Positions 42,795-64,000 of a stretch of 64,000 nt of DNA are shown in pieces. The notes under the pieces were generated by a model. The model saw only the letters and a list, made by a program, of their open reading frames with translations, was not told the origin of the DNA and did not search any database. Source of the DNA: Acholeplasmataceae bacterium. GTDB lineage: Bacteria; Bacillota_I; Bacilli_A; Acholeplasmatales; Acholeplasmataceae. Within the stretch, counting starts at the first letter, position 1. Every line of letters begins with the position of its first letter. The position numbers were made by a program, and so were the translations under genes. Location of the stretch: contig JAIOQX010000002.1 of the NCBI GenBank assembly GCA_021108415.1, positions 310,001 through 374,000 of the forward strand, written 5' to 3'.

Positions 42795-42808
42795 GTTATC
42801 TCCTTTAA

Positions 42809-45380: not shown

Positions 45381-46582
45381 TTGAGCACTTCCATTCCATT
45401 AATGATTGTGTGATGACTCATAAAAGCTTTATAAACTGATCTTTTTTTTACTGCATCTATCATCAGTAATATTAAGCCTTGATTAATTCCGTAATATCGA
45501 GGTGAAATCCATTTTTTTCCATCTTCCAAATTAAACGCATCATAAAAACCATATGGTCCATATAATCCATCAATATCTTTCATATCAAGATATGCTTGAT
45601 ATGAGATTTCTTTAGTAAATGGAAAAGATCCTAGCGCACTAGAAGGTGAGACTGTTCCATCTGTTCTTAATTTATCAAATACATTCGGTAAAGCATGAAA
45701 CACTCTATATCCATTTGGTGTGTCACTTGCGGTAAACCCGAAGAATGTTTTAGAAAATGTCTTATAAATATGTTGATGGTCAAGACTACATTTGATGTGA
45801 TTAAGTGTTGCAAGTCTAGCGTTTTCAAACCAAGAGATACCTTGTTGATCATAGATGTTTTCTAAGTCTAGGAATGCTAATGGAAATTGATACACAAATA
45901 ATGTATTTCCTGGGGTAATGATAAAATCTTGGTGATTATGTGTCGCTTTCATACGATCAAAATCATTATATAAATCAAGAGCTTCTTTTGGATTTTTATC
46001 CGCAACAAATAAATACATCATTAATTGTTCAGCAAACATATCCCATTGATGAATAAATCCTGGGATGTCTTTGATATAGTCTCCATCTTTGTTTGGATTA
46101 AAAGCCATGTGTAAATATTTTTTGTTGTTTCTTTCAAATATAAAATGTTTCCAATCAACACGTTCCATAATTTGATTAGCCAGAACTTCTACTTCATCTT
46201 TAAAATAAGATGAAACTGCAACCACACCACAAAGACAAAGTGATGTATCGATTGTAGAAATTTCATTTTTCTTATATCTTTCTGCTGTATTAAAATCTAA
46301 AAAATGAAAGAAAAACCCATGATAATTAGGTACATTATATAATAATGTTTTTAAAGTTAGATATGCTTGTTTTTTTGCTTTTTCAAAAGTTATATACCCA
46401 TTGTCTACTCCAATAACTAAGGAAGACAAATAAAATCCTGTTGATGCAATAGACGCAACTTCTAATCTTTGTGTATGATCAAGAGAAAGCCCAAAACCTT
46501 TTGAGTTTTCATCTAAATTTGTATATGTTTGAAAATAATTAAATATTCTTTTTTGTAAGTCATCTAAATTAGATAAATCCAT
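45365..46582 (-). CDS. GH144-like beta-1,2-glucanase, cytosolic paralogue
   Basis: The 405-residue protein belongs to the Glycoamylase/PF10091 fold family that includes GH144. Segments shared with the lipoprotein paralogue at 53928-55283 include GFGLSLDH, EVASIASTGFYLSSL, GFFFHFLDF, EISTIDTSL, SDTPNGYR and YGPYGFYDAFN. It lacks a signal peptide and is thus cytosolic. An exo-type role on imported oligosaccharides (release of sophorose) would fit, since some GH144 enzymes are exo-acting. The start at 46582 follows TGGGAG. It is the first gene of the LacI-controlled operon. It could instead act on another beta-glucoside. Confidence 0.72.
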   Translation of the reverse strand: MDLSNLDDLQKRIFNYFQTYTNLDENSKGFGLSLDHTQRLEVASIASTGFYLSSLVIGVDNGYITFEKAKKQAYLTLKTLLYNVPNYHGFFFHFLDFNTAERYKKNEISTIDTSLCLCGVVAVSSYFKDEVEVLANQIMERVDWKHFIFERNNKKYLHMAFNPNKDGDYIKDIPGFIHQWDMFAEQLMMYLFVADKNPKEALDLYNDFDRMKATHNHQDFIITPGNTLFVYQFPLAFLDLENIYDQQGISWFENARLATLNHIKCSLDHQHIYKTFSKTFFGFTASDTPNGYRVFHALPNVFDKLRTDGTVSPSSALGSFPFTKEISYQAYLDMKDIDGLYGPYGFYDAFNLEDGKKWISPRYYGINQGLILLMIDAVKKRSVYKAFMSHHTIINGMEVLKWKRK

Positions 46583-46597
46583 GATTTTCTCCCAAAA

Positions 46598-46611
46598 TTG
46601 AAACGTTTCGA
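46598..46611. promoter_or_regulatory. LacI-type operator in the divergent GH144/GH35 region
   Basis: TTGAAACGTTTCGA contains the perfect palindrome GAAACGTTTC (46600-46609). It lies just downstream of the minus-strand -10 and upstream of the plus-strand gene, so one bound repressor could control both. The sequence matches a second, longer palindrome before the large lipoprotein gene. Confidence 0.8.
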
Positions 46612-46622
46612 TACCTAATTCT

Positions 46623-46651
46623 ATTTTATATGATAAAATATAAAAAAACAA
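46623..46651 (-). promoter_or_regulatory. Promoter of the GH144-GH13-lacI-GH3-GH94 operon
   Basis: On the minus strand TTGTTT (46646-46651) and TAAAAT (46623-46628) are 17 bases apart. The palindromic operator lies in the initially transcribed region, a classic repressor position. Confidence 0.55.
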
Positions 46652-46691: not shown

Positions 46692-49007
46692 ATGTCAATC
46701 AAAACAAAAGACTATCGCTTTGTAAAAAACGGGAAGTATCACTTAATTTTAGCTGGTGAAATACATTATTTCAGACTACCAAAAGAATCTTGGGAAATGC
46801 ATCTTGATATCGCAAAATTAACTGGAATCAATACGATTGCGACCTATGTCCCATGGATTATACATGAAGAAATATATCGTCAATATGAATTTAGTAATGA
46901 CTATGACTTAGCTCATTTTATTACTTTATGTAAGAAGAAAAATCTTGATGTCATCTTAAAACCCGGACCTTTTATCATGGCAGAGTTAAAAAATGAAGGA
47001 TTGCCATATTGGCTTTATGAAAAATATCCAGAAATCATTCCTAAAACTTGGGAAAATCGCGCAGTAACTACACCAATGATAGATTACCTACACCCTACTT
47101 TCCTTAAAGAAGTTTATGTTTGGTATCAAAAATTAATAAACATTCTATCACCATTTATTAACTCAGTTGATAATCCTATTGTAGGTATTCAATTAGATAA
47201 TGAAGTTGGTATGTTATCATGGGTATCTAATCAACCAGAATTAACAAAAGATATCATTTCATCACTAAAAGCTCATCTACCGTCTTTAGTTAATCCTTAT
47301 CATCCAGCACATGATGAGAGTCTAATCTATCATGATACATTAGAAACTTTAATGAGAAAAAGATATGAGTCATATATTCAAAAACTTAAAGCATATTTTA
47401 AAGAATTAGGTTTAAAAGATATACTATATTTTATTAATATTCATGGCACATCAAACGGTAGAGGAAAAAACTTTCCGATTGGTGTAAGTCAACTAATTGA
47501 CACTTATAAATCACATGCAGATATTTATCCTGGACTCGACTTGTATTTTGGAAATATTGACATCGAAAACTTCCATGATTTATACATCGTAAATGCATTT
47601 GTAAAATCAACCTCAAAAGATTTAAAGCCTTATGGAACTTTAGAATTAAATGTTGCAGATGGTAATTTTGGTGACAATTTAGCGATACATCTTCTACCAT
47701 CATCGATTGATTTTAAAATACGTCTTGCATTAATCCAAGATCAAAAGTTTTTAAATTATTATTTACTAACTGCAGGTATTAATCCTAAGCTAAAAGCACC
47801 TAAAGCTGATGACTTAAATCAAAGAGTTGCCATTACAGGTGCAAGACATGGATATGCAGCACCCATACAAGTCGATGGAAGTTTATTGTATACTTATGAT
47901 ATCTTAAAAAAGACAACTCAAATGATAAACAATTTTACTTACTATCTTTCTTCTATGAAAGAACAAACTGATGATATTGTTGCTTGTTTTATGATGGATA
48001 GCTATAAAACTGAATATCATATGCCTTCATCAGATACCATTCAAAAGAAAAATGATAACTTATCTCTACATAGAAACTCAGTATATTGGGATACGCTTTT
48101 AAAACAAATGCTTCTTCTCAATTATAGTTTCAAAAGTTTTTGGATAGAGGGTGAACTTACTATTGATCCTGCTATTAAATTGTTTATCACAAATACATCA
48201 ACATATATGTCAACATCGAACCAAGAAAAAATAGTCGAATACTTAAAAACTGGAGGTAAGGTTATTTTTGTAGGAGATCTGCCAACAAAAGACTTATTTG
48301 GTCAAGACCAAACAACTTTAATTGATTATCTAAATCTTGAACCTGTAAGAAATTATTATGATTGGGAAGATCATTTGCTAACACTAACCTCTGATGTAGA
48401 GATTTATGGTCAGAATGAATTTAGAAGTTTTATTGCACAAAGTATAAAAACTGATGAGAAACCATTGTTTAGACATTTAATCACTAAAGAGGCTATCGGT
48501 GTTAAATCAAAACAATACGTTTGGATTACATCCAATTATCCAGGTCATCTTGTATATACAAAAGATATCCTTGATCACTTAAACATTCAAGGAACACTCA
48601 CAATTAAGAAGCAAAAAGGATTTATACTATCATTTAAACAATCTTATCAAGACATCAATTTATATCATCTCATTAATTTAGAACATTTCAAGCAATCTGT
48701 CACACTTTATGAAAACGAAATTGTCTTGTTTGATAATCACCAAATTGACATAAACGCTCAAGAAGCGTTAATGCTTTGGACAAATATTAGAATAAATCAA
48801 GAAACATTCATTTATTTGACTGGAGAAATACAGTCCTATACAAAAGATTCATACACTTTAAATATTGATCATAAGACAGTCTATCTTAAAATAAGAACAG
48901 ATCGCAAATTAATCAACGATTCTGATGTCACTTCATCATATCAAAATGGTGTATATGAGATTATTATTAAAGATGTTTCTGATCAAATCGTATTAAAATT
49001 TCAATAA
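46692..49007 (+). CDS. Divergent GH35-family glycosidase
   Basis: The 771-residue protein has the GH35 beta-galactosidase-like barrel in its first 330 residues: LAGEIHYFRLPKESWEMHL, GINTIATYVPWIIHEE, LKPGPFIMAELKNEGLPYWL and the acid/base Glu171 in QLDNEVG. The usual SEFY nucleophile region is replaced by GTLELNVADGNFGDN, where Glu318 is the candidate nucleophile. No signal peptide is present. The C-terminal half contains a glutamine-amidotransferase-like and beta-sandwich region. GH35 members have been reported that act on beta-1,2-glucosides as transferases, so this context favours a non-galactosidase role. The ribosome site is AAGGAG. Confidence 0.78.
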   Translation: MSIKTKDYRFVKNGKYHLILAGEIHYFRLPKESWEMHLDIAKLTGINTIATYVPWIIHEEIYRQYEFSNDYDLAHFITLCKKKNLDVILKPGPFIMAELKNEGLPYWLYEKYPEIIPKTWENRAVTTPMIDYLHPTFLKEVYVWYQKLINILSPFINSVDNPIVGIQLDNEVGMLSWVSNQPELTKDIISSLKAHLPSLVNPYHPAHDESLIYHDTLETLMRKRYESYIQKLKAYFKELGLKDILYFINIHGTSNGRGKNFPIGVSQLIDTYKSHADIYPGLDLYFGNIDIENFHDLYIVNAFVKSTSKDLKPYGTLELNVADGNFGDNLAIHLLPSSIDFKIRLALIQDQKFLNYYLLTAGINPKLKAPKADDLNQRVAITGARHGYAAPIQVDGSLLYTYDILKKTTQMINNFTYYLSSMKEQTDDIVACFMMDSYKTEYHMPSSDTIQKKNDNLSLHRNSVYWDTLLKQMLLLNYSFKSFWIEGELTIDPAIKLFITNTSTYMSTSNQEKIVEYLKTGGKVIFVGDLPTKDLFGQDQTTLIDYLNLEPVRNYYDWEDHLLTLTSDVEIYGQNEFRSFIAQSIKTDEKPLFRHLITKEAIGVKSKQYVWITSNYPGHLVYTKDILDHLNIQGTLTIKKQKGFILSFKQSYQDINLYHLINLEHFKQSVTLYENEIVLFDNHQIDINAQEALMLWTNIRINQETFIYLTGEIQSYTKDSYTLNIDHKTVYLKIRTDRKLINDSDVTSSYQNGVYEIIIKDVSDQIVLKFQ

Positions 49008-49083: not shown

Positions 49084-52000
49084 TTATTCTGCGTCAACAA
49101 AACTTACCATTGTTGCTAGTGTTGCATAAGTTCCAGTTAAATCTGAAGAAGGTACAGAAGCTATATTGAATGCAATATACTCATAGTCTCCCCAGAATGC
49201 GTCATCTAAAACGATTGTGCCAGTTAAATAACCAGTTCTCATCATAACTGTGTATGTATTGTGATCATAGCCGATATAAATAACTTTAATTTGATATCCA
49301 GCATCAACCACGATTGAGCCTTTACCATCAAATGAAGCTTTTGATAATACATTTGATGCTGCAAAACCTAAGTCAAATGCTGTAGTTCCAGTTGTAATTG
49401 ATGTTGCATTGTCATTGTAATAACCTTGTTGGAAGCTTAATGCTGTATCAACATGATCAACTAAAACTTCATCAAACATTGAGAATACTAATTGATTTGG
49501 TAATGTAGCTAATTCACCAGATATATCAGTTCCACCTGTTGTAGATGAAATATTAAATGCGATATATTGATAATCTTTATACATAGCTTCAGTTATTAAG
49601 ACTGCTTCACTGTAATCACCAGTTCTAAATAATACTTTATATCCTTCTTCTGCTGAATAAGATAAGAAGATTAATTTAACTTTATATCCAGTTTCTGGAG
49701 TAATGATTGTTCCAGCAGGAATAAACTGTCTAGGAACTACATCAGATGCTGCATATTGTTTAATGAATGAAGTATCACCAGTCGTAATTGAAGTTGCACC
49801 GCCACCCCAATATCCACTTGTAAATGTAAGATCATCGCGAACAAATGTTAATTGATTAACTAACGTATCTAACTCACCAGAAATATCTGAAGTAGGAGCT
49901 GTAGAGAAATTAAATGCGATATACATATCAGTTCCCCAGAAAGCATCATCTAATGTGATTGTTCCAGTTAAAGCAGCAGTACGGAAAGTTACTTGATAAT
50001 TTCCATATCCATCATAAGATAGATAAATTACTTTTAATGCATAACCATCAGCAACTACGATTTCAGAAACGCCATCAAAATATGCTTTAGATAAAACATT
50101 TGATGCTGCATATTTTTTATGGAAATCAGTATCGCCAGTCGTAATTGATGTTGCATTGTCTGCCCAGTAACCAGTTACTAAAGTGATTTCTTGGTCATAA
50201 TGAATCACTTGATTTGGATGCATATCAACATACATGTCGATATCTTCAGGAAGAAGAGCTGTTGTTTCATCTGTAGTTGTTACAATAAATCCTATAATTG
50301 CTTTATCTTCAGCAAATGTTGGATTAACCCAAAGTTGTTCTGTTTGATAATCACTTACATAAGATGCTGTATAAACTTGATCTGCAAATGTATAAACTAC
50401 ATAAGCAAACTTATAACCAGCAGGTACTTCAATTACTGTGTCTAAATTATAGAAAGCAGGAGTTAAAGGACTTGAGATTAAATGATTTGGAGAAGCTGTT
50501 ACTGATGTATCATCAGTCATCACATATCCATTTGTCCATTCAAGATCATAGTCAATATGATTATCTAATGTTCCAGTAGGATGATAAAGTGTTAACATAC
50601 CAGCAACTTCTGCTAGTCTTGCACTAATATCGCCTGTTGGTACAGATGAGATATTAAATGAAATATATTGATAATCTCCCCAGAATGATTCACTTACGTA
50701 AGTGTATGCAGCTGATGAATTGTTATTTCTATGAACAACTTTAAATCCATCGCCATCTCTTTCTAAGAAAATTACACGGAATTGATAACCATTTTCAATC
50801 ATGATTGAAGATCCAACAGGTAATAAACCTTTTGGAATTGGTGTAACAACTGCATAATTATTATACAATGCGTCTGTATCAGGAGAAACTGAAGTTGCTC
50901 CATCTGAGTAGAAACCTTGTGCAAATTCAAATGCTAATTCATCACCGTAATCTATATCAGCAGTTTTAGCGATTGAAACATTTTTGAAATATAGCTTAGT
51001 TAGAATATCATCTGCTCCAGTAAAGCCATCTTGATTTCTCATAGAACCAAACCAGAATTGTAGATTTCTATTCATAACTGTAGCATCTACAGCAACAGAG
51101 AAATCAAATGTATATGTATCCCATTCAGTTGTTAATGCTTGTGCAAAACTAATATTTTCTAAACCAACACCACCATTACCTTCCATTGCAACGATTATTG
51201 ATCTAGCAACGTCAGCTTTAGCTTGGAAAGTTAAACGATATTCACCAGCGAATGCTGCTAAATTTTGTACTTTAAATTGATTTTCCCAAATATTACCATC
51301 TACTGAGTCTACATTTGTAATATCAACTTCTACCACTTCATCAACAGTAGTAACTGTTAAGCCACCTCTAGTTGATTCATACCATGTTTCCCAACCCACA
51401 GGAACACCAGTAACAGCGTCTACATCAGCAAATCCTGGAATTTCAAATGCGTCAGCAACATACAATGTTCTAGTAAACGTAGTTGTTTCATTATCACTAT
51501 CAGTTACACTATATACAAATGTATATGTACCTTTTACAGCTGGAGAACCAACAACAAATGGTACTTCTGAAGTGTCAGTGTAAGTTACATCGTCTAATGT
51601 AAGTACATCTCTATCATCACCAACTGTTAAGCCACCTTTAATTAAAAAGTTCGTTGCACCAACTGGTAATAAGATATTAGTTGTTGCAGTTAATGTAGGT
51701 GCTTGGTTTTCTAATTCTGGACCAGCAACGATTGATACATTAGAAATATAAACTGTACCTAATACTGTTTGTTCAGCTGCAGGAACACCATCCACTTTAT
51801 GGAAAGTACCTAAACCAAATTGAAGTTCAACACCACCAGTTGAATCCATTGTTGTGAAAAAATCAATTGAAACTACTACATCCGATGTAGTAACATCAAC
51901 AACATGATTGTTAATTGGTTTCTTATCTAATCCGCCACCTTGAATATTAACCATCATCTTACGAGCTGCATCAGCTTTAACTGTAAAATTAAGTGTATAA

Positions 52001-52536
52001 GATTCAAATGCTTTTAACACTAATGTTTTTTGAGATAATTGAACATCCCACCAGTTATTATCCATAAGAATAGATTGTGCTGTAATATCTATTTCAGCAA
52101 CACCATTGTTTACAGAATAAGTAGCAGCAACGTCTTGAGATTCATTAACCCAAGTTGCCCAACCATTAAGGTCATCTGAGAAATCACCATTAACGAAACC
52201 AGCTAAACCCATAACAGATACAACACGTTGTTTGACTGCTTCGTTCCCAGCAGCATCTGATACTGTATAAACTACAACATAATCTCCAGCACGATTAACG
52301 TTAACTGTGTCTCCAGATACAACGATAGCGCTTGTTAAGTCACCATCAACATCATCTGTTGCACTAACGCCAGCCATTGGATCAAAAGCTTCACCTACAG
52401 AAATTTCAACTGTAGCTACACCAGTGATCACAGGTTTTACTGTGTCTGTATCACCAACTGGTTCTTCACCATCTTTACATGCAACAATTGCAAATAACAT
52501 GGTAAACATTAATAAAAATAAACTAATTTTTTTCAT
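49084..52536 (-). CDS. Large modular lipoprotein with repeat domains, putative glucan-binding
   Basis: The 1150-residue protein has a lipoprotein signal with lipobox FAIVAC (Cys about residue 20). An Ig-like domain follows (about 35-110, DUF5011-type: TDDVDGDLTSAIVVSGD). Next come a carbohydrate-binding-like jelly roll (about 112-275), a second Ig-like domain (about 285-365) and a second jelly roll (about 366-525). Five repeats of about 120 residues fill the C-terminal half, marked by GYWADNATSITTG, AASNVLSKA, VIYLSYDG, DDAFWGDYEYIAFN and SDLTG-like blocks. No catalytic domain is seen. It probably binds glucan at the cell surface. The start is set to the second of two adjacent ATGs because GGAGG is 5-6 bases from it. 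Confidence 0.8.
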   Translation of the reverse strand: MKKISLFLLMFTMLFAIVACKDGEEPVGDTDTVKPVITGVATVEISVGEAFDPMAGVSATDDVDGDLTSAIVVSGDTVNVNRAGDYVVVYTVSDAAGNEAVKQRVVSVMGLAGFVNGDFSDDLNGWATWVNESQDVAATYSVNNGVAEIDITAQSILMDNNWWDVQLSQKTLVLKAFESYTLNFTVKADAARKMMVNIQGGGLDKKPINNHVVDVTTSDVVVSIDFFTTMDSTGGVELQFGLGTFHKVDGVPAAEQTVLGTVYISNVSIVAGPELENQAPTLTATTNILLPVGATNFLIKGGLTVGDDRDVLTLDDVTYTDTSEVPFVVGSPAVKGTYTFVYSVTDSDNETTTFTRTLYVADAFEIPGFADVDAVTGVPVGWETWYESTRGGLTVTTVDEVVEVDITNVDSVDGNIWENQFKVQNLAAFAGEYRLTFQAKADVARSIIVAMEGNGGVGLENISFAQALTTEWDTYTFDFSVAVDATVMNRNLQFWFGSMRNQDGFTGADDILTKLYFKNVSIAKTADIDYGDELAFEFAQGFYSDGATSVSPDTDALYNNYAVVTPIPKGLLPVGSSIMIENGYQFRVIFLERDGDGFKVVHRNNNSSAAYTYVSESFWGDYQYISFNISSVPTGDISARLAEVAGMLTLYHPTGTLDNHIDYDLEWTNGYVMTDDTSVTASPNHLISSPLTPAFYNLDTVIEVPAGYKFAYVVYTFADQVYTASYVSDYQTEQLWVNPTFAEDKAIIGFIVTTTDETTALLPEDIDMYVDMHPNQVIHYDQEITLVTGYWADNATSITTGDTDFHKKYAASNVLSKAYFDGVSEIVVADGYALKVIYLSYDGYGNYQVTFRTAALTGTITLDDAFWGTDMYIAFNFSTAPTSDISGELDTLVNQLTFVRDDLTFTSGYWGGGATSITTGDTSFIKQYAASDVVPRQFIPAGTIITPETGYKVKLIFLSYSAEEGYKVLFRTGDYSEAVLITEAMYKDYQYIAFNISSTTGGTDISGELATLPNQLVFSMFDEVLVDHVDTALSFQQGYYNDNATSITTGTTAFDLGFAASNVLSKASFDGKGSIVVDAGYQIKVIYIGYDHNTYTVMMRTGYLTGTIVLDDAFWGDYEYIAFNIASVPSSDLTGTYATLATMVSFVDAE

Positions 52537-52560
52537 CATTTCCTCCTATTTTTTTGTTTT

Positions 52561-52578
52561 AATCGAAACGTTTCGATT
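52561..52578. promoter_or_regulatory. LacI-type operator before the large lipoprotein gene
   Basis: AATCGAAACGTTTCGATT is a perfect 18-bp palindrome between the promoter and the ribosome site. The core GAAACGTTTC is identical to that of the operator at 46600-46609. Confidence 0.85.
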
Positions 52579-52685: not shown

Positions 52686-53909
52686 TTATTGATATTGTGA
52701 AACGGTTACCTCAAACATTTGCATATAAGCATTATTTACTGCTTCTTTAGCAATTAAAAGATCTTGATCAGTCATTGTTGATGGTTTATATTCAATATCA
52801 TCAATAGAGTAACCAGTTATCGTTTTAAACCACATAAGAGCTGTAACATAGCGTCCATAAGTGTTTAAGTGGTAGCCGTCACGATTCATATTATCACCAA
52901 CTACACTTGAGCGTACATTTTGAATTGCTGTGCCTGCAGGAATGATTTGTCTAAATGTTTCATCATTTAAAATCAAGTTTTGATTTACATTCATAATTGC
53001 TTCGTACATAGTCATTTGATCACGATCATATGTAGGAAAACCACTATGTGTAGAATTTTGAGCATAAGCCCATGTTTGATGCCACATAAATGTAGTATCT
53101 GTTAGTTTGTTTTCATTTACATAATCAACTAAATCATCTAAAAAAGGTTGATATGATTCTTCTACACCTGTTAATGGACTTGCTTGTTGCATAGTTATAA
53201 TATCCCATTGTTCATCTAATAGACCAATAAGTAAACTCTTATTGCCTTTATTTTCCCATTCATTATCAAAGTTTTTTTCATATCGATAACTTGATGTGCC
53301 ATTAGTGAATGTATTATAGTGAGTTTCTAGTGAAGAACCACCAATATAAAGATAAGCAAATGTTACATTTGTAATACCATAGTCAGCTGCAATTTCTCCT
53401 AAATAAGTCATTGCATCTTCACTAAAACTATTTCCGATTGCTAATACTTTTAAAGAATCACTATAATCTTTAACACCAGGAGTTGTTCCATCTCTTGTAA
53501 TTGACTTAACAGAAACGTATGCTGATGATGACATATCTTTACCCTTAATTCTAAGCATACTTTCACCAATCACACTACCTACAACGCTTAAATAACTGTC
53601 AGTAGATCTTTGGTTAAAGTTAATGTTTTTCATTGTTTCATCAACAACAAATTTACCATCTTCAACTTTACCAAATAAGTATTCTATTGAATCAAACTCA
53701 CCATCAATTAATACATGTTTTTCAATCGTTTCCCCAACATTAATTTCTAACATATAAGGAGATTCTAACGTACCTTCTCCAACAAGACCTACAACAGAAA
53801 TATCTATTGAGTCTGGTCCTTCATCTACAACTTCTTCTTCCTCTTTTGCGCAAGCCGCAAACATACCAAGTGATGCAACTAGCAGTAAAACCATCCAAAA
53901 CTTTTTCAT
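52686..53909 (-). CDS. DUF4886 SGNH-hydrolase-like lipoprotein
   Basis: The 407-residue lipoprotein has a signal with lipobox FAAC (Cys20) and an N-terminal Ig-like part (about 30-130). The DUF4886 SGNH domain (about 148-390) has block I SLKVLAIGNSFSEDAM with the nucleophile Ser and a C-terminal DGYHLNTYGRY block with the Asp and His. SGNH enzymes remove ester groups. As cyclic beta-1,2-glucans often carry substituents such as succinyl or phosphoglycerol, removing such a group is possible, but this is inference. It follows the GH144 lipoprotein gene by 18 bases. Confidence 0.78.
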   Translation of the reverse strand: MKKFWMVLLLVASLGMFAACAKEEEEVVDEGPDSIDISVVGLVGEGTLESPYMLEINVGETIEKHVLIDGEFDSIEYLFGKVEDGKFVVDETMKNINFNQRSTDSYLSVVGSVIGESMLRIKGKDMSSSAYVSVKSITRDGTTPGVKDYSDSLKVLAIGNSFSEDAMTYLGEIAADYGITNVTFAYLYIGGSSLETHYNTFTNGTSSYRYEKNFDNEWENKGNKSLLIGLLDEQWDIITMQQASPLTGVEESYQPFLDDLVDYVNENKLTDTTFMWHQTWAYAQNSTHSGFPTYDRDQMTMYEAIMNVNQNLILNDETFRQIIPAGTAIQNVRSSVVGDNMNRDGYHLNTYGRYVTALMWFKTITGYSIDDIEYKPSTMTDQDLLIAKEAVNNAYMQMFEVTVSQYQ

Positions 53910-53927: not shown

Positions 53928-55283
53928 CTATTCAACATTTAAAAATCCCAGGTTAATTAACCCTTGTCTAACATTTTCATTTTGCATGAAATATGTCCAA
54001 ATTAACTCAGATCGATAATTTTCAATCATGAGTAATGAAATACCTTTGTCAATACCTAAGTAATCCGAGTCATACCATGGTGTGATTGCAGCTATTGTTG
54101 GATTGTAAAATGAATCAACAGGACCTAAATTATAAGCATCTTTTAATCCATATTCACCTATTAGTCTTGAGTCATCGTAAAAATTCTGAACTGCCATTAA
54201 AGATTCATATTCTAAGTAATTAACTGAAGCAACCGCTGCATATGGTGCAATCGTTCCATTATGACTATTAGATTTAGCTGTTTGCGCACCATAAGCTCTA
54301 TATTCATTTGGTCCATCAGATGCTGATATACCCCATGAAGTTTCGCTATAAGTTACATATCGATCTGCATAATCTTGAGTATATAAATAATTTGCTCTTG
54401 TAGCCATCGTTGCATTGGTAAACCAATCGGTACCTTGATAATCTATAATATCTCTAAAATCAATAAATGCATGTGAGAATTGATGTTGAAATAATGATCC
54501 GTCATGTGTGTAGTAATACGGTCCAACAATTTCACCTGTGGTTGTTGATTCATAAGTTCCATAATAATTAACTTTAACTCTAGATTTAACTGTTTTATAT
54601 AATGAGTCATCTGTTGGATATGTGTCAGAACCTGCAGCAAGAACATATAAGATCATTTGTTCAGATATATGATCCCATGCGCCTCCAAATCCATCTTCTG
54701 GCTTATAGCCCATATAAAACATGTTATTACTATCGTTTACATACCAAGTCCAATCAACACCATCATAGATTGTATTTGCTAAATCTTTAACTGTGCCACC
54801 AAAATATTCAGCAACCACTAAAGCTCCTGCAATCATAAGTCCAGTATCGATTATAGAAACTTCAGAATTCCAAGCTCTAAGACCTGTAGACATATTTAAA
54901 AAGTGATAATAAAAACCATTTGTTCGCTCAAGAGTCAATAAATTTTCAAGAGTTTTTTGTGCTCTTTCTTGACCTTCTGCTTCTGTAATCCAACCATTTT
55001 CAACACCAGCAGGAATACTTGCTAATGAAAATCCAACTGAAGCTACTGAAGCGATAGTTGCATTTCCTGGGTATCTATCTCTTGATAGCCCATAACCTGG
55101 TGATCCTTCTTGATGATTGGTTTGTTCCCAAAAAAAGTTAAAAGCCAATTCTGCTTCGTTATATAATATTTCTTTTTGAACCTTTAGAGGGTCATCAACG
55201 GGAACTTCTGTTTCTTCTTTGTTGCACGCTGTTATGGTTACTAAACTCAGTAACAATAAAAGTAACAATAGTGTTTTTTTCAT
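53928..55283 (-). CDS. GH144-like endo-beta-1,2-glucanase lipoprotein
   Basis: The 451-residue protein has a lipoprotein signal with lipobox ITAC (Cys20) and then an (alpha/alpha)6 barrel of the PF10091/GH144 kind. Segments include EQTNHQEGSPGYGLSRDRYP, TIASVASVGFSLASIPAGVE, GFYYHFLNMSTGLRAWN, EVSIIDTGLMIAG and SASDGPNEYRAYG. GH144 members cleave beta-1,2-glucan, the founding enzyme being endo-acting. Its surface location fits initial depolymerisation before ABC import. It is often labelled 'glucoamylase family', but the alpha-amylase type of chemistry is not implied. It directly follows the second permease pair. Confidence 0.78.
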   Translation of the reverse strand: MKKTLLLLLLLLSLVTITACNKEETEVPVDDPLKVQKEILYNEAELAFNFFWEQTNHQEGSPGYGLSRDRYPGNATIASVASVGFSLASIPAGVENGWITEAEGQERAQKTLENLLTLERTNGFYYHFLNMSTGLRAWNSEVSIIDTGLMIAGALVVAEYFGGTVKDLANTIYDGVDWTWYVNDSNNMFYMGYKPEDGFGGAWDHISEQMILYVLAAGSDTYPTDDSLYKTVKSRVKVNYYGTYESTTTGEIVGPYYYTHDGSLFQHQFSHAFIDFRDIIDYQGTDWFTNATMATRANYLYTQDYADRYVTYSETSWGISASDGPNEYRAYGAQTAKSNSHNGTIAPYAAVASVNYLEYESLMAVQNFYDDSRLIGEYGLKDAYNLGPVDSFYNPTIAAITPWYDSDYLGIDKGISLLMIENYRSELIWTYFMQNENVRQGLINLGFLNVE

Positions 55284-55285
55284 AT

Positions 55286-56221
55286 CTATTCTCCTGTAAT
55301 TCCTGCTCTATCAATACCTTCAATAAACCATCTTTGCATGATGAAGTATACCAAAAGCATTGGTGCAATGATCAGCATAGTCGCTGCCATTCTAACTGCT
55401 TCGTTCGCATAATTAAGTGCTTGCGAACTACCTAAAATCGATGAATATTCAGAAACAAAATCTGCTAATCTCATTTGTAAGGTTTCGACACCGTTACCTA
55501 AGAATAATGTTGAGATGTAGGTTTCGTTCCAATACCATACAAAACTAAATAAGAAACTTGTAATAAATGATGGTATAGACAATGGAATTGCGATTTTAAA
55601 ATAAATGTAGAGTCTACTTGCGCCATCAATTTGTGCTGCTTCATCTAATACCATAGGAATCATTTTATAGAATTGGTAAAAGATTAATATAAAGATAGCT
55701 GAATTAAGACCTTGCCCAAGTGTTGCTGGTATGATGATTGACCAAACAGTTTCTAAGATACCTAAATTAAAGAATAACACATATTTAGGAATCATCGTCA
55801 CTTGTGGTGGAATAATATAGGTTGCTACAACTAAAGCTAATAAAGTCTTTTTAAATGGGAAATTAAATCTCGCAAATCCATAACCAACCAAAGATGCAAT
55901 AATTGTTTGTAATATTGCAGGAAGCAATGTTACAGCAACACTTGATCCCATTGTTTCAAAATATTTTAAGACCGTAAATGCATCACTATAATTATTAAAA
56001 TATAGAGCTGTTGGTACTTGACTTACCATCGGATTTAATAAATCTTGCAAGCTTTGGAAACTAAATGAAACCATATGAAGTAATGGATATACATATACAA
56101 AGCCAATGGTTATAAGCAACAAATAAATTAAACTACGAAATACGATACCATCTGTTAGTTTATAGCCAAACAATTTTCTTCTAATCGTGTGTTTATTGAA
56201 TAATCTTGTTTTTTGTGTCAT
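55286..56221 (-). CDS. Carbohydrate ABC transporter permease, MalG-like (second pair)
   Basis: The 311-residue membrane protein has six predicted helices and the EAA loop LDEAAQIDGASRLYIYFKIA (about residues 195-214) that docks the ATPase. It belongs to the CUT1 family of oligosaccharide importers. It starts 2 bases after the MalF-like gene stop and precedes the GH144 lipoprotein gene by 2 bases. With the MalF-like neighbour it forms one heterodimer. No solute-binding protein is dedicated to this pair in the window. Confidence 0.9.
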   Translation of the reverse strand: MTQKTRLFNKHTIRRKLFGYKLTDGIVFRSLIYLLLITIGFVYVYPLLHMVSFSFQSLQDLLNPMVSQVPTALYFNNYSDAFTVLKYFETMGSSVAVTLLPAILQTIIASLVGYGFARFNFPFKKTLLALVVATYIIPPQVTMIPKYVLFFNLGILETVWSIIIPATLGQGLNSAIFILIFYQFYKMIPMVLDEAAQIDGASRLYIYFKIAIPLSIPSFITSFLFSFVWYWNETYISTLFLGNGVETLQMRLADFVSEYSSILGSSQALNYANEAVRMAATMLIIAPMLLVYFIMQRWFIEGIDRAGITGE

Positions 56222-56223
56222 GG

Positions 56224-57219
56224 CTATCTCCTAACTTTCTTGATTTTAGGTTTTCTCTGATAGGCAATAAGCATCACAGTGATGCCTAAAATCATTGCAA
56301 CAATCAAGAAATAAACCCAAGCTAGTGCAGCAGAATATCCATACCCTCTAGAGGTATCAAACATCAGTGTTTGAATATGTTTGATAATCGAGTTGGTAGA
56401 AAATGTTGCAAGCATAACAATCGTATAGACAGCGCTCACTAAGATTATGTTTCTTAATGAAGGTAGGGTAATCTTCCAAAAAGATTCCCATGGAGATGCA
56501 CCATCAATTTGTGCAGCTTCATATATTTCTTGGTCTATTTTTTGTAAGCCTGCTAAAAATAGGACAATTTGCACACCAGAAAACCAAAGAATAATAATAA
56601 TTTTAGAAAATAAATTAGTGATTGGTTCTGCTAAAATTGCAGGTAATATAGATTCAATTGTTTCAATGACAGCTAATTGTTGAATGAGTGGTATAGATCC
56701 TGCTTCTTGTTGTAACAATTCATTAATAACAGGTCCACTTACAATAATAACCGGGAGGAAATATATAGATCTAAAAAATCCTCTTAATTTAATTTTTTGA
56801 TTGAGTAATATCGCAATTAACATAGAAACAATTAATATAATAGGTAATTGTAGAACAATATCGCCGATAAACTCACGCAAATAATCAATAAACTCTAAAT
56901 CTGTCGTAAATATTTGAATATAATTGGTAAGTCCTACCATCTCAAACTGTATCCCTTCACCACCAGTAATGGTCACTTTGTTTAAACTGTAATATAAAGA
57001 GTTTAATAAAGGGTAAAGTGTTAATGTAATAAATCCAAATATCCAAATTGAAATGAACGAATATCCTTGTAAACTTTCTCTTAGGCGATTGGTAATCTTT
57101 TGATGAAATTTATTAAACCATATGATTTCTTTATTTGATATGCGAATAAACCAGTTATGTGTGAGCACATACCCTATTTTTTTAAACACGTTTTGGATGA
57201 TATGAAGTGTCTTTCTCAT
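56224..57219 (-). CDS. Carbohydrate ABC transporter permease, MalF-like (second pair)
   Basis: The 331-residue permease has an unusually long basic N-terminal tail of about 50 residues before the first helix (FISIWIFGFITLTLYPLL). Five further helices follow, and the EAA loop YEAAQIDGASPWESFWKI lies near residue 240. It pairs with the MalG-like gene that follows. It overlaps the DUF5696 gene as ATGA, so translation is coupled. Confidence 0.9.
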   Translation of the reverse strand: MRKTLHIIQNVFKKIGYVLTHNWFIRISNKEIIWFNKFHQKITNRLRESLQGYSFISIWIFGFITLTLYPLLNSLYYSLNKVTITGGEGIQFEMVGLTNYIQIFTTDLEFIDYLREFIGDIVLQLPIILIVSMLIAILLNQKIKLRGFFRSIYFLPVIIVSGPVINELLQQEAGSIPLIQQLAVIETIESILPAILAEPITNLFSKIIIILWFSGVQIVLFLAGLQKIDQEIYEAAQIDGASPWESFWKITLPSLRNIILVSAVYTIVMLATFSTNSIIKHIQTLMFDTSRGYGYSAALAWVYFLIVAMILGITVMLIAYQRKPKIKKVRR

Positions 57220-59468
57220 GGATTAATCACCTCATATTCCATTGCATTTACTGATACACCTTCGACGACAACATCGTTTCCTGAATAATTTATGTAGATA
57301 ACTGTATGATTGGTATACGTATTTTTAACAACACCTAATCCTAGGACTTCTCTTGATATGAAACTTTGTCCTGTGACATTTTTTAATGCATCATTAACAA
57401 ATTCATATTGAGAAACTATTTCATTTTTCCAATCTTCATATCTTGATGTAAAGATGTTATTTGATCCTGTATTAAGTAATAAATACGACGCTTCATGAGT
57501 AATATAAAACGAAGGATAAACACCATAATCAATCATTCTTAGTAATTCATTTGTTTTATTAGAAAAGAAATTACTTGAACGTCCATATGTTGTTTGATAT
57601 CCAGATAAGACCATTGCATAAAATGGTACGGTATCACTAAATTTAGACTGTTGACTTGAATACATCGGTATATCATAGATCACGTCAGCAAACCATAAAT
57701 AACTAAATGGTTTTTCTATCGCAACATCATCTGTTACTTGAGCTAGATTTTGAAACAATTCTATGGATTCAGAACGACTTAAATCTGTTGTGTAATCTGT
57801 GTATAATGCATTTCCTAAAAAGTTAAATGCTAGCTTGTCAACACCATAGTCTTGCATCGCAGCTAGTGAATCATTTAATTCTAAAATTGCTTGATCCAGT
57901 TTATACATATAATAAGCTTGATCGGCAATGAGAATTTCTTGACTAATAGATTGTGCTACATCTCTTGTGCTTACACTATTATTTAATGATGAAGCATAAG
58001 GATATGATACTGTATAAAATAGATCAACTGCATTTGATAGCGAATTATTTAAATCTATAAAGTCTGACTTAGAGCCTACTTTTTTCTCAAACTTATTATA
58101 ATTAGGCGCATTAAAACTATATCCATCATTACCATAACCGTGATATGTTATATCTAAATTAGTAATATTATTTAATTCTAAATCATTGATAATGTTTTGT
58201 AATTCTTCTGTTGTTGTCATTGAAAAAGTGCTTCTGCCTATCAATGCTTTTTTATTTTCTGCAGCTAATACATCTAAGTGCAGTGATATATTTTGAAGCG
58301 CATTTAATCTTTCTAATTGGTAATTACTTACTAAATGCTCTTGATATAAATTAGCCATACCAACATAATTTGCTTGATCATTGGTTAAAAACTGATAGGT
58401 TTGTTTGATGTCATATTGACTTCTATTTTCTTGGATAAGTCTAATACTGCTTGTTTGACTTTGATTTAAGAACTGTGTATAACTTGATCTAAATTCATAA
58501 GTCACATAAGTCCAATTCATATCAGATTGGTTTTGTGCAGGTACATGTGTTAAGATTGCATTTCCTGCACCTTTTTCAATAATAGATAAAAATCCATTTT
58601 GATCAACACCATGAACCATACCATACACATTTGCATATAAGTACTCTTCAGTACTTTCTTGATTTAATCCAATATCCGCACTATAGAACTTTTTAGTGTA
58701 TACTTCTTTACCTTTAACATCGTCAACTCTAATTAATGCCCCTACACCATCAGGTATCATAATATAACCGGGTGTTCTCAATCTTTTCGTAGCTGCAAAA
58801 AATGGAAATAGTGTCATGGAAGCTAAAGGATTCGTTCCATTTTCAACAATAGTTTCATAAGGTACTTCATAGTGAAGACCCATGTCATCTATATAAACAT
58901 ATAGTGTTACTTGTACTTTAGAAAGTCCAAAAGTTATATTTGCTTTATATCCAACTCGACCATCTGTTAGTGGTTGATAAGTAAATCTACTACTTGGAGA
59001 AAACATAGTTTCCTCGCGTAGATTTGTTCCCATATAATAATTGATTATGATTGGTGAATTAAATTTATTTTGCCAAGTTAGATTGCTACCCACATCACCT
59101 AGGTCATATAAAGGGTTATCTACATCAAAATAATCGTAGTCAAAAGAAGATCCCCATATATAGCCGTTTTCAAGTTCAACAATTCTAAATGATAAATCTT
59201 GATCATTAACATAAAGTTCTATATTTGATGTATCATTTTTACCTAAAAATGTATATCCATCAAGATCAACATATGGATTGGTTGCTACATCATAGTTTTC
59301 TGTTTGTGTATATCTATTTGATAATAAACTTGATGTTGATGGTGCAATATTTTGAGTTTCTAAGACAAAATCCTGTACAACAGTATCTTGTGCAAAAACT
59401 ATATTTGCTGTAAATACAATGATGAAGGTAATTAAAATGATAAGAAATATTCTTTTAATGTTTATCAT
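57216..59468 (-). CDS. DUF5696 extracytoplasmic protein
   Basis: The 750-residue protein has a signal peptide of about 26 residues ending FTANIVFAQ. The rest is extracytoplasmic, with DUF5696-type features: YIMIPDGVGALIRVDDVKGK, ITNLDITYHGYGNDGYSF and YPSFYITHEASYLLLNTGSN. The N-terminal beta-rich part (about 60-260) and a middle alpha/beta part (about 370-600) resemble glycosidase-like barrels, although I see no certain catalytic pair. It is always near sugar ABC permeases in genomes I recall. It may handle glucans at the membrane. The operon overlaps on both sides are ATGA. Confidence 0.75.
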   Translation of the reverse strand: MINIKRIFLIILITFIIVFTANIVFAQDTVVQDFVLETQNIAPSTSSLLSNRYTQTENYDVATNPYVDLDGYTFLGKNDTSNIELYVNDQDLSFRIVELENGYIWGSSFDYDYFDVDNPLYDLGDVGSNLTWQNKFNSPIIINYYMGTNLREETMFSPSSRFTYQPLTDGRVGYKANITFGLSKVQVTLYVYIDDMGLHYEVPYETIVENGTNPLASMTLFPFFAATKRLRTPGYIMIPDGVGALIRVDDVKGKEVYTKKFYSADIGLNQESTEEYLYANVYGMVHGVDQNGFLSIIEKGAGNAILTHVPAQNQSDMNWTYVTYEFRSSYTQFLNQSQTSSIRLIQENRSQYDIKQTYQFLTNDQANYVGMANLYQEHLVSNYQLERLNALQNISLHLDVLAAENKKALIGRSTFSMTTTEELQNIINDLELNNITNLDITYHGYGNDGYSFNAPNYNKFEKKVGSKSDFIDLNNSLSNAVDLFYTVSYPYASSLNNSVSTRDVAQSISQEILIADQAYYMYKLDQAILELNDSLAAMQDYGVDKLAFNFLGNALYTDYTTDLSRSESIELFQNLAQVTDDVAIEKPFSYLWFADVIYDIPMYSSQQSKFSDTVPFYAMVLSGYQTTYGRSSNFFSNKTNELLRMIDYGVYPSFYITHEASYLLLNTGSNNIFTSRYEDWKNEIVSQYEFVNDALKNVTGQSFISREVLGLGVVKNTYTNHTVIYINYSGNDVVVEGVSVNAMEYEVINP

Positions 59469-61456
59469 CTTAAAAGCACCTCCCTAATGATTCCAAATAA
59501 ATAATCAAACATTTGACTTAATAAAACATAAATTAAAAATAATATAAGTGAAATCATGACCATAGTAAAGATCGTTAATACAAGGTTCTTAATCAATTCC
59601 GATAAGCTATAGCCATGAATTTCTTTAACCATAATAACAACTAGCAATATAGACCAACTGTTTCTAACAAATAAGAGTGCTTGATATATAAATACTTCAT
59701 TCTGTGTCATGATGTTACTTAAAATTACTATTGGTATTGTAAATAACACAAAAGGAATCAATGCATACGCTGTTGAAATATAGACGTCTTTAAACCAACC
59801 TTCACCATTATTTAATGTTGAAATCAAATAATTAGAAAAGACAAATAAGATGATAGCTCCTAATATAATTGCTGTATATCTTAAAAAGTTAAAACTTGTC
59901 ACATCATTAGTTGAAAACACAAATGATGTTAAATAGACTGCAAAAATTGAAACAATCACTATACCTGCATAAATAATATTTGCAGATGTATAAGATGATT
60001 TGTGTCGATGCTTAATCTCATAAAATGTATCTAGAGGATGTCTAAAGATAGATAAAGATAGTTTTAATTCTCTATATATCCTAGCTTTATTTAAATTAAC
60101 TTCCATTTTTCTTATTGGTTGATATATTTGATAATGATTGTCTACTGTTTTTAAACCCTTCTTTAAAACTAATCCAGCCACCAATAAGATTAACATTAAA
60201 CCTAAATAGCTTTGTAGCCAATCATATCTAATTTGCCAAAATGCTTCTGAATATCCACCTTGATCATATGCAATTAAATAGTATTCAAGTGCACCTTGAT
60301 AATCCATTTCTCTATAAAGAGCTCTTGCGATTGAACTATTTGCTAGTGCGAAGACGCTATTCATTCTTAATACTTCTTCCCATTGTTCAATTGAATATAT
60401 CCCATTTTTAAAATCAATGAGCCCTTGATGAATGATTGCTGCAAATTCAGATCGTTCTAGAATTTGAATTTTATTTGTTCCCTTATCTAATACATAAATA
60501 TGATTATTAGAATCAACTGCAAAATCAACAGGATTGACAAATAAGCCTAGTACTCTTCCACCTTTATCAATACCACCAAATTGGAAAATTAAATTTCCAT
60601 AACTATCGTATTCTGAAATCGTTCCTTCAGATGAAAGTGTATAAATATTTTCAAAATCATTTGTGACCACTGAAACAAGCATTTCTTCTGAGGATTCTTC
60701 TAAGATAATTGATGAAGATATATTAAACTTTTTAAGTTGTCTATCTGTTGTATTACTTACTGTAAATACTGACCCTGAGTTATCAAGCGTCACATTTGAT
60801 GGAGAAATTGGTATGTTTTTTGCAAATTCAACACCAAAGAAATCAGCTACACTTTTGTACCATGATGTAGTTGTGCTATTGGTTCCAAAGAAACTCAAGA
60901 ACTCTCCAGCATAATTCAATTGAATTAGACCACCAGTTGAACCCTCTCCTACGACATAAATAACACCTCTTGGACCGGTTGCAACTTTAATTGGTACAAA
61001 TGGTGAATCAGAACCAAAAATAGGCTCAGTTGGTCTTAAAATTGTATCCAGTAATACTCCTGCTTCATCATATTTATAAACTGCTTTATTACCTTTATCA
61101 GCAACATATATATTATCGTTTTCATCTACATGAATACCTGTTGGAACATTAAGTCCTGTAACTAACTCTAATGCTATGCCCTCTTGATCAACTTTTAGGA
61201 TACGTTTGTTTCCAGTATCAGCTATATATACATAATCATCTTTGATATACATATCTTCTGGAGCATTTAAAGTATACTCCGTACTAAAATAACCTGCTGG
61301 TTCATAAGCGGTTTGCGTTAAAACATATCGTCCTTTAGGTCCTATCGTATAGGTTTCATAAGGAACTGATTGTGTTGTAACCGCAGAGATATCAATGGTT
61401 ACACTTAAGATGATTGATAAAACAAATAAGGATGCAATCCATATTTTTTTCTTCAT
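59465..61456 (-). CDS. NHL-repeat and YIP1-domain membrane protein
   Basis: The 663-residue protein has a signal peptide, then an extracytoplasmic beta-propeller of NHL repeats (about residues 60-345; DMYIKDDYVYIADTGNKRIL, DNIYVADKGNKAVYKYDE, NHIYVLDKGTNKIQILERS). A helical TPR-like region follows (about 350-410), then a transmembrane helix (about 415-435) and a YIP1-type domain with about five helices (470-660). The propeller could bind sugar or a partner outside. The protein may act as an accessory part of the adjacent ABC system. Its operon neighbours are permease genes on both sides of the DUF5696 pair. Confidence 0.8.
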   Translation of the reverse strand: MKKKIWIASLFVLSIILSVTIDISAVTTQSVPYETYTIGPKGRYVLTQTAYEPAGYFSTEYTLNAPEDMYIKDDYVYIADTGNKRILKVDQEGIALELVTGLNVPTGIHVDENDNIYVADKGNKAVYKYDEAGVLLDTILRPTEPIFGSDSPFVPIKVATGPRGVIYVVGEGSTGGLIQLNYAGEFLSFFGTNSTTTSWYKSVADFFGVEFAKNIPISPSNVTLDNSGSVFTVSNTTDRQLKKFNISSSIILEESSEEMLVSVVTNDFENIYTLSSEGTISEYDSYGNLIFQFGGIDKGGRVLGLFVNPVDFAVDSNNHIYVLDKGTNKIQILERSEFAAIIHQGLIDFKNGIYSIEQWEEVLRMNSVFALANSSIARALYREMDYQGALEYYLIAYDQGGYSEAFWQIRYDWLQSYLGLMLILLVAGLVLKKGLKTVDNHYQIYQPIRKMEVNLNKARIYRELKLSLSIFRHPLDTFYEIKHRHKSSYTSANIIYAGIVIVSIFAVYLTSFVFSTNDVTSFNFLRYTAIILGAIILFVFSNYLISTLNNGEGWFKDVYISTAYALIPFVLFTIPIVILSNIMTQNEVFIYQALLFVRNSWSILLVVIMVKEIHGYSLSELIKNLVLTIFTMVMISLILFLIYVLLSQMFDYLFGIIREVLLR

Positions 61457-62338: not shown

Positions 62339-62340
62339 AA

Positions 62341-63276: not shown

Positions 63277-64000
63277 TATTTTCACCTACCCATAAAAACA
63301 GTGTATCTTTTGTTGGTAAAACATAATCTTTTAAGACATTGCCTTGTTTATCAATAAATTTGAATTCAATCATTTTTCTTGTGATTTCTTTATCAATAAT
63401 GATGGTTGCATCTTCAATTGCTGTTCTAACATTTTCTCCATCATAAACAACCTTGTTCCATATATTAGATATTTCTCTTTCTAACATATAACTAGCTGGT
63501 GTTTTTGCTGTATCGTAAACCCATTGCCATTGTTCCATAAAAGTATCTTTATGCTTCGTGTTCCAACTTAATTGTTCAAACGCTTCATAATTAGAAGTAT
63601 TCCACATGTACTCAGCACCCATTGCATTAATTAAATCTTCGGAATATGTGACTTGAGTTTCTGTTTCTGACCACCACTTCAAAAATTCCCATGATTCATC
63701 TTTTTGATCTGAATTACTAAAAATCATTGCAGATGTAGAAGAACCATCGTATGAGCGATCGACAATACCTTCATCATTTTCTACTCCAGGAAGTAATGCT
63801 ATATCCCAAAGTCCTGCAATTTCTGGAGCTGCATGAAGCAGTTGAATGTACATGCCAAAATCACCTATACCCATTGGCATATTTCCATATCTAAATTGAT
63901 TGAAAAAACTACCAACTTCTAAAGGTAAACTGTATATATTATATAAATCTGTCATAAATTTAATTGCTTCAATAGTTTTAGGATCATCTAGGGATGATGC
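63269..64000 (-). CDS. Extracellular sugar-binding lipoprotein of the ABC importer (partial)
   Basis: The last 243 residues of a MalE-like solute-binding protein are present, and the frame is open to the right edge, so the N-terminus lies outside. [17 protein letters not shown] helix, an [19 protein letters not shown] segment and a C-terminal [20 protein letters not shown] segment are typical of cluster-1 sugar-binding proteins. An extra C-terminal tail is seen ([20 protein letters not shown]). It overlaps the MalF-like permease gene and would deliver oligosaccharides to it. Confidence 0.88.

What the first reader, a model, noticed from the sequence alone, without database searches (positions are those of the whole stretch)
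52686..53909. DUF4886 SGNH lipoprotein next to the surface beta-1,2-glucanase
Block I GNSFS and block V DGYHLN are intact, and the gene directly follows the GH144 lipoprotein gene. Natural cyclic beta-glucans are often substituted, and a surface esterase would remove the groups that block the glucanase. This would assign a substrate to a family of unknown function.
Basis: inference. Interest (0 to 1): 0.55.

Follow-up and report, generated by a model that had tools for sequence, protein, structure and literature searches.

The report
Surface esterase for beta-1,2-glucan use
A bacterium related to Acholeplasma carries, inside its gene set for eating beta-1,2-glucan, a surface enzyme of a family with no known function that probably strips acyl groups off that sugar polymer, and the link recurs in related genomes under one shared DNA control signal.

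Summary

The link holds beyond this genome. In 6 of 160 genomes of the order DUF4886 lies 0.4-2.4 kb from GH144. In 6 more it lies elsewhere, but with the exact palindrome TCGAAACGTTTCGA, the mark of the GH144 loci, 15-34 bp before its start codon. At up to one mismatch the palindrome occurs in 28 of 28 GH144-positive and 0 of 8 GH144-negative genomes tested. A ~116-residue repeat without Pfam family, here in the next gene, was found in the order only with DUF4886 (15 of 15 loci). Six other GH144 loci hold an unrelated acetyl esterase (AXE1); one holds a glycerophosphodiesterase under the palindrome.

Limits: no activity was tested. DUF4886 also sits in other glycan loci and near no GH144 in 20 Bacteroidales loci, so the substrate can be assigned to a subgroup, not to the family. 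Acetyl or succinyl esters are plausible; phosphoglycerol would need the other enzyme. Block III has Gln241, not the usual Asn.

The parts
52686..53909 (-). DUF4886 (PF16227) lipoprotein-like protein, 407 aa; catalytic domain residues 154-394 (nt 52728-53450); N-terminal beta-rich part about residues 37-137
53928..55283 (-). GH144-type endo-beta-1,2-glucanase lipoprotein (GH144a); E208, F265, Y331 align with XcSGL E239, F286, Y367
49084..52539 (-). 1151-aa lipoprotein: Ig-like domain and two CBM_4_9 stretches (residues 1-536), then five copies of a DUF4886-linked repeat (residues 537-1151)
49087..50931 (-). five-copy repeat region (about 116 aa each; units 50584-50934, 50224-50547, 49840-50190, 49480-49833, 49096-49443); unit model pLDDT 97.3, beta-rich; no Pfam family or PDB sequence relative found
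52563..52576 (.). exact palindrome TCGAAACGTTTCGA, 23 bp before the start codon of the repeat-lipoprotein gene, behind the DUF4886 gene: proposed operator of the cluster's LacI
46598..46611 (.). same palindrome with one mismatch, at the GH144b start and before GH35
45365..46651 (-). second PF10091 protein (GH144b), no lipobox seen; E and F kept, Phe at the clan Tyr position
46692..49007 (+). GH35 protein; closest solved structure is the beta-1,2-glucosyltransferase 7vkw
43773..45380 (-). GH13 protein; closest solved structure oligo-1,6-glucosidase 1uok
42809..43768 (-). LacI-family regulator of the cluster
40656..42815 (-). GH3 protein; closest solved structure Lin1840 (4zoa)
37378..40659 (-). 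1,2-beta-oligoglucan phosphorylase-type protein (SOGP domains); closest 5h3z
55286..57219 (-). two ABC permease genes (55286-56221, 56224-57219)
57216..61456 (-). DUF5696 protein (57216-59468) and NHL-repeat/Yip1 membrane protein (59465-61456)
61466..63955 (-). second ABC permease pair and the end of a solute-binding protein that runs past the window; the run of genes begins at G000:C1 377.7 kb with an exact palindrome 16 bp before the first start codon

Best explanation
The gene encodes a cell-surface serine esterase that works with the neighbouring GH144 lipoprotein. Shown: the domain, the intact Ser/Asp/His, the SGNH-like fold of the model, the place in a beta-1,2-glucan locus, and a shared palindrome in twelve genomes. 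Inferred: the Ig/CBM/repeat lipoprotein holds extracellular beta-1,2-glucan at the cell surface; DUF4886 removes ester-linked acyl groups (acetyl and/or succinyl) by the usual Ser-His-Asp acyl-enzyme route; GH144a then cuts the bared chain; oligosaccharides enter through the ABC transporter and are finished inside by GH144b, SOGP, GH3, GH35 and GH13; LacI, bound to the palindrome, keeps the set off without substrate.
For: Domain and triad. Fold: model pLDDT 92.5; 4i8i Z 39.7, rmsd 1.3, 255 aligned; then SGNH enzymes, among them acetylxylan esterases 7ddy (Z 14.0, rmsd 3.1, 177 aligned) and Axe2 4jj4 (Z 13.7, rmsd 3.3, 185 aligned). Locus: best solved relatives of the neighbours are beta-1,2-glucan enzymes. 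Position: DUF4886 and PF10091 matches 437-2421 bp apart, same strand, in 6 genomes of 4 genera. Palindrome: 28 of 28 GH144-positive genomes given (of 42) and 0 of 8 negative ones given (of 118) at up to 1 mismatch, 26 of 28 with an exact copy (p 3e-8, uncorrected for relatedness); exact copies 15-34 bp before the start codons of DUF4886 genes away from GH144 in G004, G077, G148, G149, G150, G154. The LacI near DUF4886 in G150 and G154 nests in the LacI clade of GH144 loci, while no LacI was labelled in the stretches read of their own GH144 loci. Repeat: all 12 genomes found with the window sequence alone also have DUF4886, in the same ORF or the next gene (p 8e-13). AXE1 lies about 2.6 kb from PF10091 in 6 of 42 GH144 genomes (read directly in two). 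A phosphodiesterase gene of the GDPD family stands beside DUF4886 under the exact palindrome in G015. Such glucans carry succinyl and/or acetyl groups (PMC11842490, passages).
Against: No activity data. 36 of 42 GH144 genomes have no DUF4886 near GH144, and 30 of 42 have neither DUF4886 nor AXE1 there, so the function is optional. Other DUF4886 copies lie in other glycan loci. Two copies of this regulon are altered at block I (G017 Ser to Arg, G004 Gly to Glu); sequencing error not excluded. The usual block III Asn is missing. The regulon copies fall in two clades whose relation the tree leaves open, so repeated recruitment is not proven. That LacI binds the palindrome is inferred.
Confidence: 0.66

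Rival explanations
1. A general surface acetyl esterase: DUF4886 removes acetyl from many glycans with no preference for the beta-1,2-glucan backbone and is taken up by whichever glycan locus needs it.
For: DUF4886 occurs with GH130 and 2-epimerase genes, with GH2, GH88, heparinase and GH94/AXE1 genes in Bacteroidales; L045 of a GH130 locus sits in the same clade as L040 and L046.
Against: 10 of the 11 rows in the two relevant clades belong to loci or genes with the palindrome, which suggests a specialised subgroup.
Confidence: 0.22
2. The protein is mainly a glycan-binding or scaffold lipoprotein whose enzymatic activity is minor or lost.
For: Tight association with a repeat of unknown function; two regulon copies altered at block I; usual block III Asn absent.
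Against: Ser161 kept in 57, Asp344 and His347 in 58 of 58 domains, the window protein included.
Confidence: 0.07
3. The target is not beta-1,2-glucan but another polymer used at the same time, and the shared palindrome reflects co-use.
For: In G148 the DUF4886 and repeat-lipoprotein pair lies 451 kb from PF10091; 5 of 21 DUF4886 genomes have no PF10091.
Against: DUF4886 lies between GH144a and the CBM lipoprotein in G000, G086 and G087; the three GH144-negative DUF4886 genomes tested (G003, G008, G011) lack the palindrome.
Confidence: 0.05

Closest known systems
BACUNI_01406 (PDB 4i8i), DUF4886 of Bacteroides uniformis
   Same: same Pfam family, 42-43% identity, Z 39.7 over 255 residues
   Different: function not given in the record; its gene context was not examined here
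SGNH acetylxylan esterases (AlAXEase 7ddy, Axe2 3w7v) and CE3 2vpt
   Same: fold, and Ser / Asp-x-x-His arrangement
   Different: about 12-15% identity; Gln at block III instead of Asn; 7ddy and 3w7v are named acetylxylan esterases (titles)
beta-1,2-glucan cluster of Ignavibacterium album with IALB_1185 (PMC8861115, passages)
   Same: two GH144 proteins, GH35 glucosyltransferase, SOGP homologue, putative Sop-binding protein
   Different: the words esterase, SGNH and lipoprotein do not occur in its main text
Listeria innocua SOGP cluster (PMC8861115, passages)
   Same: SOGP, a sophorose-preferring GH3 and a Sop-binding protein; Lin1840 is the closest solved relative of the window GH3
   Different: whether it has GH144 or DUF4886 was not examined

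Membership tests
DUF4886 (PF16227) | profile match above the curated cut-off over the whole domain | tested here: met
   276.7 bits against 26.7, profile 1-242 of 242
[quoted passage not shown]
   present in the window protein; kept in 57, 58 and 58 of 58 domains; features from PMC9487903, passages
SGNH hydrolase superfamily | Block II Gly | tested here: met
   G191, 56 of 58, by sequence position only
SGNH hydrolase superfamily | Block III Asn in the oxyanion hole | tested here: inconclusive
   Gln241 follows the strand 237-240 and is kept in 57 of 58, Asn in 1; spatial equivalence not measured; the review lists DUF4886 in the superfamily and describes other members without this Asn
SGNH hydrolase superfamily | alpha/beta SGNH fold | tested here: met
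   predicted model: 4s1p Z 17.1 (rmsd 2.7, 180 aligned), many SGNH esterases Z 12-14
SGNH carbohydrate esterase | hydrolysis of an ester on a carbohydrate | not testable with these tools
   no assay
GH144 (neighbour 53928-55283) | closest characterised relative in GH144, and clan residues E, F, Y | tested here: met
   8xul E 1.5e-58; E208, F265, Y331; no tree of the clan was built
GH144 (neighbour 53928-55283) | endo-beta-1,2-glucanase activity | not testable with these tools
   no assay
beta-1,2-glucan utilisation locus | GH144 with SOGP, GH3, transporter and binding protein | tested here: met

The most novel reading that the evidence does not exclude
These loci are built for naturally decorated, ring-shaped beta-1,2-glucans, including those closed by one alpha-1,6 bond. 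GH144 cuts beta-1,2 bonds, the GH13 oligo-1,6-glucosidase relative removes the alpha-1,6 link, DUF4886 (or AXE1 in other genomes) removes acetyl or succinyl, and in at least one genome a surface GDPD enzyme removes phosphoglycerol. DUF4886 of this subgroup would be the first known deacylase of beta-1,2-glucans, and the repeat a new glucan-binding module that moves between the esterase and its partner lipoprotein.
Probability: 0.28. Interest if true: 0.72.

Novelty: new variant of a known kind. Interest (0 to 1): 0.57.

Why it matters
DUF4886 is one of five SGNH families listed without any known function in a 2022 review (PMC9487903, passages). Gene position, a shared palindrome and domain fusion now name one testable substrate class for a defined subgroup. 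They also suggest that bacteria that eat beta-1,2-glucans must deal with the groups attached to them; the word esterase does not occur in the main text of two papers on beta-1,2-glucan enzymes (PMC8861115; PMC11842490) and occurs once, in a general sentence, in a third (PMC12102758). The work also exposes an uncharacterised repeat domain tied to this family.

Tried and rejected
Family-wide link to GH144: rejected. Among Bacteroidales 72 of 247 genomes have a DUF4886 match. I fetched 20 of the matches, the 19 best and one more; DUF4886 was found again in all 20 and GH144 in none of them at E 0.001 in six-frame segments of up to 20 kb. The ORF list had missed DUF4886 in L106.

Phosphoglycerol as substrate of DUF4886: rejected on chemistry (general knowledge). 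Fold of the repeat unit: no Foldseek match at E 0.001; the best VIA-align Z is 5.1 (rmsd 3.3, 78 aligned), which I do not read as kinship; whether the fold is new is open. A scan of public genome contigs with the window protein gave only 3 loci. DUF4886 and AXE1 never share a GH144 locus (6 and 6 of 42), but chance alone gives no overlap with probability 0.37. Two weak repeat matches in genomes not in the DUF4886 lists (G242 E 5.5e-4; G527 E 2.0e-4) I take as chance. One-mismatch palindromes without a recognised cluster gene downstream (G024, G044:C94, G075:C3, G150:C3) I take as chance; the reversed control pattern hit 5 of 36 genomes once each. For G024 this is its only site, so its GH144 locus probably lacks this operator. 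The exact site in G014:C34 has no ORF of 100 aa or more just behind it in the stretch read. Promoter-like matches in the region (31) were fewer than in shuffles (mean 40.8).

Rows dropped: the tree left out L034, L036, L101 and L039 as duplicates or near-duplicates and domains under 190 residues; G077 (C215, C226) was not in it. The 30 rows were my choice and left out the long fused copies, among them the two with an altered block I; one search counts 58.

Full report
What is there. The ORF 52686-53909 (minus strand) is a 407-aa lipoprotein-like protein with a complete DUF4886 domain. The Ser, Asp and His of an SGNH esterase are intact; over 58 family domains they are kept in 57, 58 and 58. 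Gln241 (57 of 58) stands where the usual block III Asn is expected. The AlphaFold2 model is confident (mean pLDDT 92.5) and matches the DUF4886 structure 4i8i (Z 39.7, rmsd 1.3, 255 aligned), then SGNH enzymes, several of them acetylxylan esterases (Z 13-14, rmsd about 3.1-3.4, about 170-185 aligned).

The locus. The upstream neighbour 53928-55283 is closest to 8xul, XCC2207, which I take for the GH144 beta-1,2-glucanase XcSGL (PMC12102758, outline and passages), and keeps the three clan residues. Other genes have beta-1,2-glucan enzymes as best solved relatives: GH35 with the glucosyltransferase 7vkw (E 5.8e-46; the next clearly different protein, 6jow, 3.6e-31; 7x87, labelled beta-galactosidase but of the same 724 residues, I take for a variant of the same protein), SOGP with 5h3z (E 3e-239; that this entry is a SOGP is recalled), GH3 with Lin1840 (E 2e-190). 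The order binding proteins, two permeases, NHL-Yip1, DUF5696, two permeases, GH144a, (DUF4886), (Ig-CBM), (GH35), GH144b, GH13, LacI, GH3, SOGP recurs, with gains, losses and cut ends, in the loci I read.

Co-occurrence. In the order, DUF4886 is found in 21 of 160 genomes, two of them only as weak partial matches (G005, G006), and PF10091 in 42 of 160. 16 genomes have both, 5.5 expected, p 3e-7 without correction for relatedness. In 6 genomes (G000, G001, G015, G017, G086, G087; four genera) the two matches lie 437-2421 bp apart on the same strand; in G001 the Ig-CBM gene lies between.

A shared palindrome. TCGAAACGTTTCGA lies exactly at 52563 before the repeat-lipoprotein gene, with one mismatch at 46598 by GH144b and GH35, and exactly again 16 bp before the first gene of the run outside the window. 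In 36 genomes that I chose (28 of 42 PF10091-positive, 8 of 118 negative) it occurs, at up to one mismatch, in 28 of 28 and 0 of 8; 26 of the 28 have an exact copy. The reversed control hit once in each of 5 genomes. Sites with a recognised target lie before the first binding-protein gene, the Ig-CBM lipoprotein, GH144b/GH35, DUF4886, a repeat lipoprotein of about 850 aa, a CitMHS-type transporter, or a GDPD gene; a few have none (see Tried and rejected). Exact copies stand 15-34 bp before the start codons of DUF4886 genes in six genomes where PF10091 is far (G004, 131 kb; G148, 451 kb) or on other contigs (G077, G149, G150, G154). In G004 and G149 this is the only site found. In G150 and G154 the regulator gene near this DUF4886 nests within the LacI clade of GH144 loci, while no LacI was labelled in the stretch read of their own GH144 loci. 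Counting genes with the palindrome in front and genes inside a palindrome-bearing GH144 locus, DUF4886 belongs to this regulon in 12 of 21 DUF4886 genomes of the order. That LacI binds the palindrome is inferred.

Which copies. In a tree of 58 domains the regulon copies fall in two supported clades (95/94 and 100/100), with one other member, L045 of a GH130 locus; whether the clades are sisters is unresolved. Other copies lie in GH130/2-epimerase loci (G004, G158) or a DUF1861 locus (G154) or elsewhere; in Bacteroidales beside GH2, GH88, heparinase, GH94 and AXE1 genes (10 neighbours chosen from the 94 listed). The family is broader than one substrate.

A DUF4886-linked repeat. The next gene, 49084-52539, ends in five repeats of about 116 residues. 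Searched with the window sequence alone, the repeat occurs in 12 of 160 genomes, all with DUF4886, in the same ORF or the next gene (in G087 the next gene is broken into three ORFs). With a profile it occurs in 13 of 160 genomes at 15 loci, 10 fused and 5 adjacent (the profile holds rows from most of these loci). In 392 genomes of the phylum, a sample that overlaps the order, 11 match, 10 with DUF4886 in the same ORF or next gene and 1 weak match without. In 247 Bacteroidales, one fused case and one weak match without. No Pfam family (scattered weak hits, best E 0.0013) and no PDB sequence matches, and the fold search gave nothing reliable. The CBM proteins read in GH144 loci of G012, G014, G147 and G158, which have no DUF4886 there, lack it; so does that of G148, whose repeat sits with its distant DUF4886. 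By inference it binds the polymer for DUF4886.

Other enzymes for attached groups. AXE1/CE7 acetyl esterases lie about 2.6 kb from PF10091 in 6 of 42 GH144 genomes, all of one genus; two were read directly between LacI and GH3. In G015 the gene behind DUF4886 encodes a 610-aa protein with a GDPD phosphodiesterase domain (E 4.6e-32), a signal-like start and a membrane-like end (by eye), about 15 bp behind the exact palindrome. In G031, G033, G041 and G044 a CitMHS-type anion transporter (E about 1e-29) is divergent from the 850-aa lipoprotein with two palindromes between them; uptake of a released acid such as succinate is a guess. All this fits a substrate that carries groups.

Substrate. [quoted passage not shown] glucans of Dickeya dadantii carry acetyl and succinyl (PMC4726272, passages). 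The GH13 protein is closest to oligo-1,6-glucosidase 1uok (E 1.4e-165) and has a DVI motif that I recall as marking alpha-1,6 specificity. Hence the bold reading that these loci handle decorated, partly alpha-1,6-closed glucans.

Literature. DUF4886 was found in one paper, and of PF16227, BACUNI_01406 and 4I8I only PF16227, in the same paper; it lists the family without function. A search for at least two of GH144, acetyl esterase, SGNH and acetylesterase found 244 papers; none of the 15 listed holds GH144. I saw passages of five papers (PMC9487903, PMC12102758, PMC8861115, PMC11842490, PMC4726272), none in full.

Verdict. The link to beta-1,2-glucan use is well supported for this subgroup; the esterase reaction and the acyl group are inferred; the family-wide assignment is not supported.

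Noticed in passing
L042:7655-9484: In G015 a GDPD-domain protein (PF03009, E 4.6e-32) is encoded behind DUF4886 in the GH144 locus, just after an exact palindrome; candidate for phosphoglycerol removal.
   Followed up: partly
L116:592-4137: A Bacteroidales DUF4886 fused to the same repeat lies next to a GDPD/DUF4996 gene and a histidine-phosphatase-like gene, a second DUF4886-GDPD neighbourhood.
   Followed up: partly
L125, L126, L133, L145: A CitMHS-type transporter is divergent from the 850-aa lipoprotein with paired palindromes; in L125, L126 and L133 a GDPD-domain ORF converges on it.
   Followed up: partly
window:57216-61456: DUF5696 and an NHL-repeat/Yip1 membrane protein recur with the ABC permeases in the GH144 loci read, and also in a GH130 locus of G158 and a DUF4886 locus of G306; their role is unknown.
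   Followed up: partly
window:45365-46651: The second GH144-like protein has Phe at the clan Tyr position; 19 of 21 such proteins aligned (duplicates included) lack Tyr, against 6 of 26 of the GH144a kind.
   Followed up: partly
window:43773-45380: GH13 oligo-1,6-glucosidase relative inside a beta-1,2-glucan locus; labelled in 16 of the 25 GH144 loci read, several of them cut.
   Followed up: partly
L041:4947-7526: Approximately 850-aa repeat lipoprotein without Pfam match, behind DUF4886 in L041 and L043; relatives directly behind the palindrome in L090, L122, L125, L126, L131, L133 and L145.
   Followed up: partly
L002:2637-14851: In strain zrk7 the repeat lipoprotein frame is broken into three pieces and the NHL-Yip1 and DUF5696 frames into two each; sequencing errors or decay.
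   Followed up: no
L046:1474-3822 and L047:7998-10829: Two regulon DUF4886 copies are altered at block I (Ser to Arg in G017, Gly to Glu in G004).
   Followed up: no
L104:6965-18127: A Bacteroidales DUF4886 beside AXE1, GH94, GH3 and GH130 genes: a glycan locus with two esterase families.
   Followed up: partly
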